Source: a virus. From it: a stretch of DNA of 22,452 nt. Under the pieces are notes generated by a model. It had not been told where the DNA came from. It saw only the letters and a program-made list of their open reading frames with translations, and did no database searches. Of this stretch, positions 1,456 through 3,495 are shown piece after piece. The stretch is taken from the IMG/VR virus record IMGVR_UViG_3300048999_000035, positions 1-22,452 of that record; one strand, 5' to 3'. Position numbers and translations under genes: made by a program. Positions within the stretch are counted from its first letter, which is position 1. Every line of letters starts with the position of its first letter.

Positions 1456-1488
1456 ACGTGTCGCTGGTTACAGGTTGGTCGCGGAGAG

Positions 1489-1518
1489 TTGCGAGGTCAG
1501 CCCGATTCAGGTTAGTGT
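1489..1518 (+). promoter_or_regulatory. possible sigma-70-like promoter
   Basis: TTGCGA (1489-1494) and TAGTGT (1513-1518) are separated by 18 bases. Transcription would start near 1525, about 10 bases before the hairpin at 1535-1573, and no plausible plus-strand coding sequence follows. It could make a very short RNA or be a chance match. Confidence 0.25.
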
Positions 1519-1534
1519 CTGCCTAGTTTGAGAT

Positions 1535-1573
1535 CGGTGCCCCCGTTGAGTCTTTACGGCTCCGGGGGCACCG
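1535..1573 (+). terminator. strong hairpin, probable terminator of the left operon
   Basis: CGGTGCCCCCG (1535-1545) pairs perfectly with CGGGGGCACCG (1563-1573): 11 bp with a 17-base loop. The bases after it (GTGTGTTTCGG) are only moderately T-rich. It lies 80 bases after the stop of the last plus-strand early gene, the right place to end that transcript. An attenuator or structured small RNA is also possible. Confidence 0.5.
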
Positions 1574-1659
1574 GTGTGTTTCGGCTCGGTTCGGCGCGCT
1601 GATCTGCGTCGAGGTAACCACACCCGTGAGGGTTGAGGCCGAGAGCCGACAGGAGACAC

Positions 1660-1677
1660 GGCAACCCCAGGGTTGCC
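1660..1677. repeat. 18-bp dyad, operator-like
   Basis: GGCAACCC and GGGTTGCC flank a CA, giving a nearly continuous palindrome too tight for a good RNA hairpin but suited to a dimeric DNA-binding protein. The half-site GGCAACC recurs at 1777-1783. The binding protein, if any, is unknown; the small HTH protein encoded 150 bases away is one candidate. Confidence 0.35.
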
Positions 1678-1783
1678 TCACGCGGGTCTCCGTGGCTGGC
1701 ACACACAGTCTTGCCAGGCACCGCCCCACGCGAGCCCTAGCGCAAGCGCGCTGGCCGTGGCGACCCCGAGCAGCCTGGCAACC

Positions 1784-1817
1784 GCCCGCCGCGGACCTTG
1801 CCCGTCCAGCGGCGGGC
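1784..1817. terminator. GC-rich hairpin between converging transcripts
   Basis: GCCCGCCGC+GGAC (1784-1796) pairs with GTCC+GCGGCGGGC (1804-1817) with one bulged A at 1808 and a 7-base loop: 13 bp in all. It lies 13 bases beyond the stop of the minus-strand HTH gene. There is no T tract on either side, so it would be a weak or Rho-assisted terminator, or a barrier between the converging operons. Confidence 0.4.
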
Positions 1818-1829
1818 CACAAACTCTCC

Positions 1830-2009
1830 TTACCGACTGGTCTGGTCGAGGTCGGTGCGCGCCCCCTGACGCTTCTTGACGGCGCGGATCTGGTCGGCGT
1901 CGTAGCCGGATACCCGTTGGATGCCTCTGTCGGCGAGGATGGCGCGGGCCCGGGAAAGGCTGACACCCCAGTGCTCGGCCGCCTGCTCAACGGTCCACAG
2001 TTCGGCCAT
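1830..2009 (-). CDS. small HTH protein, MerR/excisionase-like (59 aa)
   Basis: The protein starts MAELWTVEQAAEHWGVSLSR and continues with ARAILADRGIQRVSGYDADQ. This is a compact helix-turn-helix at about residues 5-28 followed by a wing-like turn and a basic tail (IRAVKKRQGAR), the layout of excisionase/MerR-type small DNA-binding proteins. The ATG at 2009 has an excellent AGGAGGT ribosome site, which lies inside the end of the upstream gene, and overlaps that gene's TGA by one base (TGATG), so the two are translationally coupled. In this position it may be the autoregulator of the two-gene unit, or a recombination directionality factor; no integrase is in view to support the latter. DNA binding is likely from the motif; the target is unknown. 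Confidence 0.75.
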   Translation of the reverse strand: MAELWTVEQAAEHWGVSLSRARAILADRGIQRVSGYDADQIRAVKKRQGARTDLDQTSR

Positions 2010-2452
2010 CACAGACCTCCTGCGTCGATCAGCCACAGTCGGCCACCGTTGGCCACCACGTTGCCAGCGTCGTTGAAGTCGCAAGCCTCCGGGAACGCGG
2101 GCCGACCTTCGTAGGGCACGCTTTCGTCTTCGGGCAGGTAGGGCATGGCGACGACAGTGGTCTCTTCGGGTTCGTCACCGGACGGCGGCTGGTAGGTGAG
2201 GGTCCAGAGGGTGGCCTCGGGCGCGTAGTCCTTGCCGGCGTCGCGAGCGGCCTGGAGTTGCTTGACCTCGAAGCGGTTGACGCTGTTGTGGCCGATCTTG
2301 TAGACGACGTCGCCGTCGGGGCAGAGGTAGACGGTGCGGTGGGAGCCCTGGCCGATCTGCTGCCACTCGTCGATGTAGGGGACCTCGTCCCACTCGCCGT
2401 AGTGGAGATGGAGGGCGGCGAGTGCGTCTTCGTGGTTGCCGATGGTGGCCAT
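2009..2452 (-). CDS. minimal protein-kinase-fold-like protein (147 aa)
   Basis: Elements of the kinase/aminoglycoside-phosphotransferase fold appear in order: Gly-rich loop IGQGSHRTVY (33-42), a Lys in VVYKIG (Lys52), a candidate helix-C Glu62, a hinge-like VVAMPYLPED (100-109), then DFNDAGNVV (125-133), recalling the catalytic D-x-x-x-x-N, and LWLIDAGG (139-146), recalling the DFG/IDFG metal-binding motif. The protein ends one residue later, so the whole activation segment and lower C-lobe are absent, and only about 15 residues separate hinge and catalytic loop. A full kinase domain is about 250 aa. The ATG at 2452 follows GGGAGG at a good distance and lies about 23 bases after a predicted start site from the promoter at 2482-2510. 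Fold assignment is my reading of motifs; activity, substrate and role are unknown. It may be a pseudokinase or a compact phosphotransferase. Confidence 0.6.
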   Translation of the reverse strand: MATIGNHEDALAALHLHYGEWDEVPYIDEWQQIGQGSHRTVYLCPDGDVVYKIGHNSVNRFEVKQLQAARDAGKDYAPEATLWTLTYQPPSGDEPEETTVVAMPYLPEDESVPYEGRPAFPEACDFNDAGNVVANGGRLWLIDAGGL

Positions 2453-2481
2453 TTCGTCCTCCCGGTTTTGCCCTGCTACAG

Positions 2482-2510
2482 AACATACGGGCGCAACGCT
2501 CGGAAGTCAA
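2482..2510 (-). promoter_or_regulatory. strong sigma-70-like promoter for the reverse-strand unit
   Basis: On the minus strand, TTGACT (2510-2505) and TATGTT (2487-2482) are separated by exactly 17 bases, close to the consensus. The start site would be near 2475, about 23 bases before the kinase-like gene, whose ribosome site follows. This is the best promoter match I found in the window, and it gives the reverse unit transcription independent of the phage late operon. Confidence 0.7.
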
Positions 2511-2526
2511 TGACCCTGGAGGACCC

Positions 2527-3495
2527 GTGACCGACGTGCGCGTCGCAGGCAAGCTCGGCAAGAAGGCGCCCGACCACACCAGGCCCCGGCTGCGCCTCAC
2601 CCCGCACCTCACCGCGGTCCCGCAGCCCCCAGCGAAGGTCGACTGGCTGTCTCGCGTGCAGAACTGGCCCATGTACCTCAACGACCAGCTCGGCTGCTGC
2701 ACCTGCGCCATGGCAGGCCACGCCCTGGAAGCCTGGTCGACCTACGGGCAAGGCCACACCGTCACAGTCACCGACCAAGACGTCCTCACCGCCTACGAAG
2801 CCGTCTCCGGCTACCGCCCCGGCCACCCCGAAACCGACCAGGGTGCCGTGATGCAGGACGTCATGGACTACCTGCGCAAGACCGGCATCGCAGGCCACAA
2901 GGTCCTCGCCTTCGCCCAGGTCAACCACAAAGACCCGGCCGAAGTGAAGGCCGCCCTCAACGTGTTCGGCACCCTCCTCGTCGGCATCGAGTTCCCCGCC
3001 TCGGCGATGGACCAGTTCAACGCCGGGCAACCGTGGGACGCTGTGCGCAACGACGGAGGCATCGAAGGCGGCCACGCCATCCACGTCGGCCACGACGAAA
3101 CCGGCAACGTCGCCTACAAGTGCACCACCTGGGGCGCCGTGCAAGGCATGACCCAAGCCTTCTGGGACCGCTACGTCGACGAGTGCTGGGTCGCCATCGC
3201 CCCCGAGTGGCTGTCCGCCGCCGGCGCCAGCCCGGGAGGCGTCGACCTGTACGGGCTCGGTGAGGACCTGCACGACCTGACCGGCGCGCAGAACCCCTTT
3301 CCCGCGCCCCAGCCAACCCCCCAGCCTCCTACGCCGGCTCCTGGCCCTACTCCTACGCCTGTTCCGGTCCGCCCGGACGGCGCGGACGAAGCGTTCGCCC
3401 AAGTAGCCGCCCCCTGGTCCGCCGAGCGTCACGTGGGTGAGAACCGCCGTGTGGCTGTGGCGTTCGAGAAGTGGCGGAAGGCCCGCGGCCTGTAA
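2527..3495 (+). CDS. papain-like cysteine peptidase (322 aa)
   Basis: The active-site region matches papain (C1) geometry: Gln54 and Cys60 in NDQLGCCTCAMAGH have the six-residue spacing of papain Gln19 and Cys25; His183 in GGHAIHVGHD matches the DHAV motif; CTTWG (199-203) replaces the usual NSWG, so the Asn position holds Thr. The folded domain is about 35-230, followed by a Pro-rich linker (about 256-282) and a 40-residue C-terminal piece with basic residues. No signal peptide or cell-wall-binding domain is visible. The GTG at 2527 follows GGAGG (2519-2523). The gene stands just before the terminase genes. It may process virion proteins, act on the host, or be a virion-carried hydrolase; a C39-type or endolysin-like role is the main alternative. 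Confidence 0.7.
   Translation: MTDVRVAGKLGKKAPDHTRPRLRLTPHLTAVPQPPAKVDWLSRVQNWPMYLNDQLGCCTCAMAGHALEAWSTYGQGHTVTVTDQDVLTAYEAVSGYRPGHPETDQGAVMQDVMDYLRKTGIAGHKVLAFAQVNHKDPAEVKAALNVFGTLLVGIEFPASAMDQFNAGQPWDAVRNDGGIEGGHAIHVGHDETGNVAYKCTTWGAVQGMTQAFWDRYVDECWVAIAPEWLSAAGASPGGVDLYGLGEDLHDLTGAQNPFPAPQPTPQPPTPAPGPTPTPVPVRPDGADEAFAQVAAPWSAERHVGENRRVAVAFEKWRKARGL

What the first reader, a model, noticed from the sequence alone, without database searches (positions are those of the whole stretch)
1830..2510. Reverse-strand two-gene unit with its own promoter inside a plus-strand phage genome
A kinase-like gene and a small HTH gene overlap by one base (TGATG), run against all neighbours, have strong ribosome sites, a near-consensus promoter (TTGACT, 17 bases, TATGTT) and a hairpin just beyond the second stop. 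That is the form of a moron expressed from a prophage independently of late genes. A kinase-fold protein next to a small DNA-binding protein recalls HipBA-like pairs, in reversed gene order, so an anti-phage, exclusion or growth-control role deserves a test. The structure is seen; the function is inference.
Basis: partly seen in the sequence, partly recalled or inferred. Interest (0 to 1): 0.68.

Follow-up and report, generated by a model that had tools for sequence, protein, structure and literature searches.

The report
Miniature phage kinase with regulator gene
An actinobacterial virus carries, on the opposite strand and with its own switch, a very small kinase that stops where an ordinary protein kinase is only about half finished, plus a small DNA-binding protein; its close relatives often sit beside a lone CRISPR gene, which suggests (but does not prove) a tool for disarming the host's defences.

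Summary
Two minus-strand genes (kinase-like 2452-2009, HTH 2009-1830) overlap by one base (TGATG), have good ribosome sites, a promoter that shuffled sequence does not give, and a hairpin downstream (without a U-run). The 147-aa protein is a real kinase-fold protein. It belongs to a family of phage and plasmid proteins (PHROG 28435, unnamed; some Streptomyces-phage members are labelled "kinase") that keep the Lys, Glu, Asp and DxG motifs but end 3-14 residues after the DFG aspartate. The activation segment and the rest of the C-lobe are missing. The nearest characterised kinases are the T7 gp0.7 kinase domain (remote homology) and the minimal kinases HopBF1/OspG (fold). Seven close relatives (46-51% identity) sit in plasmid and virus contigs. 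In four the gene lies just upstream of a Cas7 gene, and in five the promoter carries a long inverted repeat. The HTH is not a HipB: it is 62-68% identical to the N-terminal domain of plasmid DUF6036 nucleotidyltransferases and is beside the kinase nowhere else I found. The HipBA reading is not supported. Best reading: an accessory, probably counter-defence, mini-kinase with its own promoter and a possible Aca-like autoregulator. Activity and targets are inferred.

The parts
2482..2510 (-). sigma-70-like promoter TTGACT-17-TATGTT of the two-gene unit
   Evidence: 9/12 match, 0.0 expected in shuffles; GTATGTTCTG shared with the promoter of the M. zamorensis homologue, reached by 17 of 5000 shuffled pairs
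2009..2452 (-). 147-aa mini-kinase: G-loop G34/G36, K52, E62, catalytic D125 (loop D-F-N-D-A-G-N), D143 of the IDAGG motif, stop four residues later
   Evidence: AlphaFold2 model pLDDT 83.6, pTM 0.81; best VIA matches HopBF1, OspG, NleH2 and full-length kinases
2453..2463 (-). ribosome-binding site GGGAGGACGAA of the kinase gene
   Evidence: sequence
1830..2009 (-). 59-aa HTH protein with C-terminal QGARTDL motif; start overlaps the kinase stop by one base
   Evidence: 62-68% identity to the N-terminal domain of plasmid proteins
1784..1817 (-). stable hairpin beyond the HTH stop, possible transcript end, no U-run

Best explanation
The unit is an accessory operon of an actinobacterial phage, transcribed against its neighbours from its own promoter. 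Its first gene makes a minimal protein kinase of the phage family PHROG 28435, remotely related to the T7 gp0.7 kinase domain. Shown: the operon layout, the kinase fold, conservation of the ATP- and metal-binding residues, and the family-wide end of the protein just after the DFG-like motif. Inferred: the protein binds ATP and phosphorylates host proteins, with the missing substrate-binding C-lobe supplied by a partner (the target itself, a host protein or a second copy), much as OspG needs E2-ubiquitin. Inferred: the targets are host defence or regulatory proteins, as for the gp0.7 homologue JSS1_004. Inferred: the HTH protein binds its own promoter and turns the unit down after an early burst, as Aca proteins do in acr-aca operons.
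For: Homology to proteins labelled kinase in Streptomyces phages. Invariant G, K, E, D and D in 17-22 diverse members. In all 22 aligned members 3-14 residues follow the last Asp, and the M. zamorensis homologue ends the same way. Models: window protein pLDDT 83.6; family member L014 pLDDT 92.7, Foldseek best hit OspG E 1e-5, alignments ending at the DFG of PknB-type kinases. T7 gp0.7: profile score 37.7 against a maximum of 22.2 in 100 shuffles; 8 of 22 members hit PHROG 15752, annotated as the gp0.7-type kinase, best E 1.1e-5. JSS1_004, a gp0.7 homologue, phosphorylates and disables DndFGH and other defence proteins (PMC12345140). Four of seven close relatives lie directly, or one or two genes, upstream of a Cas7/Csd2 gene, with no Cas5d in the three of those records that were searched. 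Inverted repeats of 11-20 bp overlap the promoter region in five relatives. Accessory distribution.
Against: No activity data. The window's subfamily also lacks most of the helical segment before the catalytic loop (no C-lobe helix in the model, pLDDT about 60 at residues 110-130), and in most members its catalytic loop is one residue longer (D-x-N-x-x-G-N), so it could be a pseudokinase. T7 gp0.7 kinship is remote and JSS1_004 needs its C-terminal domain too. Cas7 is not found in the 22 kb of the window or beside three of the seven close relatives. The window promoter has no inverted repeat, and its HTH is not next to the kinase anywhere else.
Confidence: 0.5

Rival explanations
1. Pseudokinase: the protein binds nucleotide or a host partner through the N-lobe and acts by binding alone, for example as a decoy or inhibitor of a host kinase or defence protein, without phosphate transfer.
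For: C-lobe missing after DFG and little between hinge and catalytic loop; catalytic loop insertion; low-confidence catalytic region.
Against: K52, E62, D125 and D143 are invariant across the close members and nearly all of the wider family, which a pure binder would not need; gp0.7-type kinases, whose homology to this family ends at the same place, are active (PMC12345140).
Confidence: 0.25
2. HipBA-like or other toxin-antitoxin pair: the kinase is a growth inhibitor and the HTH its antitoxin.
For: Kinase fold beside a small HTH gene with coupled translation.
Against: No HipA domain and no PADLOC hit; HTH of another type (HTH_23/HTH_17-like, weak); order reversed; the HTH is not beside the kinase in any relative and the kinase occurs without it.
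Confidence: 0.08
3. Superinfection exclusion or prophage-encoded defence: the unit is expressed in lysogeny and blocks other phages.
For: Own promoter, opposite strand, moron-like placement.
Against: Most isolated relatives are in large Streptomyces phages, in gene arrays on the same strand as their neighbours, often several copies per genome; no integrase or repressor seen in the window; no match to the defence model library.
Confidence: 0.12

Closest known systems
PHROG 28435 and the 'kinase' / 'serine/threonine kinase' proteins of Streptomyces phages (Stanwilliamsviridae, e.g. Beuffert 251, Kenrey 258)
   Same: Same kinase motifs, same end just after the DFG-like motif, remote but significant homology
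   Different: 147 rather than about 155-180 aa; no Cys-rich or helical insert before the catalytic loop; about 30% identity
T7 gp0.7 / JSS1_004 phage protein kinases (Autographiviridae)
   Same: Phage-borne accessory kinase; profile-level similarity from the G-loop to the DFG-like position
   Different: No C-terminal basic shutoff domain; less than half the length; operon from a self-standing promoter
Minimal effector kinases OspG, NleH, HopBF1 (also SteC, described as having a depleted C-lobe in PMC13395416)
   Same: Kinase fold with a much reduced C-lobe; best or near-best structural matches
   Different: Secreted into eukaryotes, no sequence-level homology found; they keep some residues after the DFG motif (own knowledge)
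WP_328384463.1 on the Micromonospora zamorensis plasmid NZ_CP107937.1 and contigs L124-L129
   Same: 46-51% identity over almost the whole length, identical or near-identical LWLIDAGG end, own promoter in most, first gene of a small operon
   Different: Second gene is a membrane-like protein, an unknown small protein or Cas7, not this HTH
acr-aca operons (e.g. PMC9410906)
   Same: Strong promoter, small accessory gene, then a small HTH gene
   Different: No inverted-repeat operator in the window; no anti-CRISPR activity shown

Membership tests
PHROG 28435 mini-kinases | Match to the family profile with kinase motifs G-x-G, Lys, Glu, catalytic Asp, DxG | tested here: met
   Window protein hits phrog_28435 at 2.8e-4; A1 profile matches it at 1.8e-37, but A1 contains it; motifs aligned
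PHROG 28435 mini-kinases | Protein ends within about 15 residues of the DFG aspartate | tested here: met
   Four residues in the window protein; 3-14 in all 22 aligned members
T7 gp0.7 kinase | Homology of the kinase core | tested here: met
   Met for the family profile: hhalign 37.7 vs shuffle maximum 22.2, PHROG 15752 best 1.1e-5; not shown for the window protein alone
T7 gp0.7 kinase | C-terminal basic transcription-shutoff domain | tested here: not met
   Protein ends at residue 147
HipBA | HipA-type kinase domains | tested here: not met
   No HipA model among Pfam hits at E<=1, none in NCBIfam or PADLOC; length 147 aa
HipBA | hipB (XRE/Cro-C1 HTH) upstream of hipA | tested here: not met
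   HTH lies downstream; weak hits are HTH_23/HTH_17 types, no XRE model
Minimal effector kinases (OspG/HopBF1) | Kinase fold with depleted C-lobe | tested here: met
   Z 8.1 HopBF1, 7.2 OspG for the window model; OspG top Foldseek hit for L014
Minimal effector kinases (OspG/HopBF1) | Kinase activity dependent on a partner or substrate | not testable with these tools
   needs biochemistry
acr-aca operon | Small accessory gene followed by a small HTH gene under one promoter | tested here: met
acr-aca operon | Inverted-repeat operator at the promoter bound by the HTH protein | tested here: not met
   No inverted repeat of 8+ in 2453-2530, though present in five relatives
acr-aca operon | Inhibition of CRISPR-Cas | not testable with these tools
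   needs plaque assays

The most novel reading that the evidence does not exclude
A family of counter-defence kinases in actinobacterial phages and plasmids that stop at the DFG motif and depend on their target to complete the fold. They are deployed from repressor-controlled promoters together with lone Cas7 proteins that act as CRISPR decoys.
Probability: 0.25. Interest if true: 0.82.

Novelty: new variant of a known kind. Interest (0 to 1): 0.6.

Why it matters
Phage kinases that disarm many defence systems at once were described as almost confined to T7-like phages (PMC12345140). A family of half-length relatives in actinobacterial phages and plasmids, several copies per phage, recurrently next to a Cas7 gene, would widen that class. 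It also raises a clear biochemical question: how little of a kinase is enough. The questions are testable with proteins of 140-185 residues.

Tried and rejected
Single-protein scans of viral contigs and genome contigs with P0001 found nothing, nor did genome contigs with the family profile A2: the family was not found in 85,000 species genomes by pattern search, which is not proof of absence. P0002 alone in viral contigs: none. Thermobifida phage P1312 gene 040, 147 aa and annotated 'sensory protein kinase', is a membrane-like protein, not this kinase. HipBA, toxin-antitoxin and aminoglycoside phosphotransferase readings were rejected as homology claims; APHs appear among fold matches but the substrate-binding part is missing here. 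Decay of a longer HTH-nucleotidyltransferase gene: no trace of the DUF6036 part in the window. The close relative L003/L017 could not be used to test insertion at this site because its contig ends just upstream of the peptidase gene. The genome search by taxonomy was not possible for a virus record. Inverted-repeat operator in the window: none. Rfam and tRNA scans: none.

Full report
Observation. The two genes, their one-base overlap, ribosome sites, promoter and hairpin are all present at the stated coordinates. Codon-position GC fits coding in the minus frames and not in the rival plus-strand ORFs. The hairpin lacks a U-run, so a terminator is possible but not shown.

What the kinase is. Pfam, NCBIfam and PADLOC do not recognise the 147-aa protein; PHROGs gives family 28435, of unknown function, at 2.8e-4. 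A tblastn lead to Streptomyces phage Blueeyedbeauty (32% over 70% of the protein) opened a family in 38 Streptomyces phage records, some annotated kinase or serine/threonine kinase, with up to three matching places per genome. Profile scans then gave soil virus contigs L014-L016 and L103-L113, several with two copies in tandem. The best of these show D-x-H-x-x-N followed by V/I-P-V/I-D-F-G and then the stop codon. Across 17-22 members the glycine loop, VAIK-type lysine, helix-C glutamate, catalytic aspartate and DFG aspartate are invariant or nearly so. In all 22 aligned members 3-14 residues follow the DFG aspartate. One further contig member, L113, departs from the pattern at its C-terminus. 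An ordinary protein kinase would still have its activation segment and the helices F to I.

Closest relatives of the window protein. One is on a Micromonospora zamorensis plasmid (47%) and six are in IMG/VR contigs L124-L129 (46-51%). All end LWLIDAGGL, or VWLIDAGGY in L125; the seven aligned keep K52, E62, D125, N127, N131 and D143, and they are shorter before the catalytic loop than the rest of the family. In most the catalytic loop is D-x-N-x-x-G-N, one residue longer than usual; L125 has the usual spacing.

Structure. The window protein models at pLDDT 83.6 as a complete N-lobe plus hinge, catalytic loop and beta hairpin, without C-lobe helices, and with about 60 at residues 110-130. VIA-align ranks HopBF1 first (Z 8.1, rmsd 3.3 over 110 residues), with OspG, NleH2 and full-length kinases at Z 6-7; these scores are middling and the order among them means little. 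The family member L014 models at pLDDT 92.7; Foldseek puts OspG first (E 1e-5), and VIA alignments to PknB, BRAF and others (Z 8.5-10) end at their DFG motif.

Link to T7 gp0.7. Eight of 22 family members hit PHROG 15752, annotated as the protein kinase that inhibits host transcription, best E 1.1e-5. The family profile aligns to T7 gp0.7 residues 63-213, from the G-loop through FDMHSGNIMF to ITD, with score 37.7; 100 shuffled versions reached at most 22.2 and the reversed sequence 11.0. The kinship is remote. It matters because the gp0.7 homologue JSS1_004 phosphorylates DndFGH, CasD, HerA and QatABCD and disables them (PMC12345140).

Neighbourhoods. In four of the seven close relatives (M. 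zamorensis plasmid, L126, L127, L129) the kinase is followed directly, or after one or two small genes, by a type I-C Cas7/Csd2 gene on the same strand. Between the three loci compared, Cas7 identities are 63-79% and kinase identities 66-72%, so they are related but diverged modules. No Cas5d was found in three of the four records (L129 was not searched), so the Cas7 looks solitary; other cas genes were not searched for. Viral cas homologues that act as anti-CRISPRs are known (Katz et al. 2024, cited in PMC13131331). The window has no Cas7 match in its 22 kb. Five relatives carry inverted repeats with 11-20 base arms over the kinase promoter (L129 20/20), and in four the best -10 hexamer ends 6-7 bases before the start codon, which suggests leaderless messages (the promoter match is weak in some of them, strong in L127). 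The window promoter shares GTATGTTCTG with the M. zamorensis one (17 of 5000 shuffled pairs reach that length) but has no inverted repeat.

The HTH. P0002 is 62-68% identical to the N-terminal domain of long proteins on mycobacterial and rhodococcal plasmids, several annotated DUF6036 nucleotidyltransferase. Stand-alone, more distant forms occur in a Streptomyces linear plasmid and Thermobifida phage P1312. The motif QGARTDL closes the domain in nearly all. It is not beside the kinase in any relative examined. The kinase thus starts small operons whose second gene varies: this HTH, a membrane-like protein, an unknown small protein or Cas7. That is against an obligate toxin-antitoxin pair.

Distribution. 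None of 79 contigs found through the major capsid protein holds the kinase or HTH in the DNA held, and the kinase profile is absent from 27 of those records searched whole. Many of these are fragments and most are not close relatives, so this shows variable presence, not an insertion event at this site.

Judgement. Kinase fold and family: about 0.95. Accessory unit with its own promoter: about 0.9. Active protein kinase: about 0.6. Aimed at host defence or regulation: about 0.5. HipBA-like: below 0.1. What is new is the family-wide end at DFG outside T7-like phages and the recurrent Cas7 neighbour; the kind, phage protein kinase, is known.

Noticed in passing
L115:7405-8259, L126:5792-6640, L127:5429-6295, L129 about 2505-3356: Apparently solitary type I-C Cas7/Csd2 genes downstream of the mini-kinase in a Micromonospora plasmid and three virus contigs; no Cas5d in the three records searched.
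   Followed up: partly
L129:1623-1665, L126:4951-4990, L127:4941-4978, L128:4941-4980, L115:5960-5982: Long near-perfect inverted repeats over the kinase promoter of relatives, operator-like, absent in the window.
   Followed up: partly
L003:1808-4456: Terminase of the nearest relative (77% identity) carries an intein-like insert (CLTGEDRV...LHKN) that the window's terminase lacks; the terminase sequence just around the insert is nearly identical.
   Followed up: no
L116:4001-5092 and similar plasmid loci: P0002-type HTH fused to a DUF6036/AbiEii-like nucleotidyltransferase on mycobacterial plasmids; possible toxin or regulator.
   Followed up: partly
window 2527-3495 and L003:89-910: Peptidase-like genes (papain-like motifs by eye) upstream of the terminase genes, different in the two related phages.
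   Followed up: no
window 1456-1829: Convergent non-coding stretch with several inverted repeats, e.g. 1535-1545/1563-1573 (11/11), possible terminator of the plus-strand gene ending at 1455.
   Followed up: partly
L014:5884-7010, L016:5393-6504, L103:3252-4483: Two mini-kinase genes in tandem in soil phage contigs; Streptomyces phages hold up to three matching places.
   Followed up: partly
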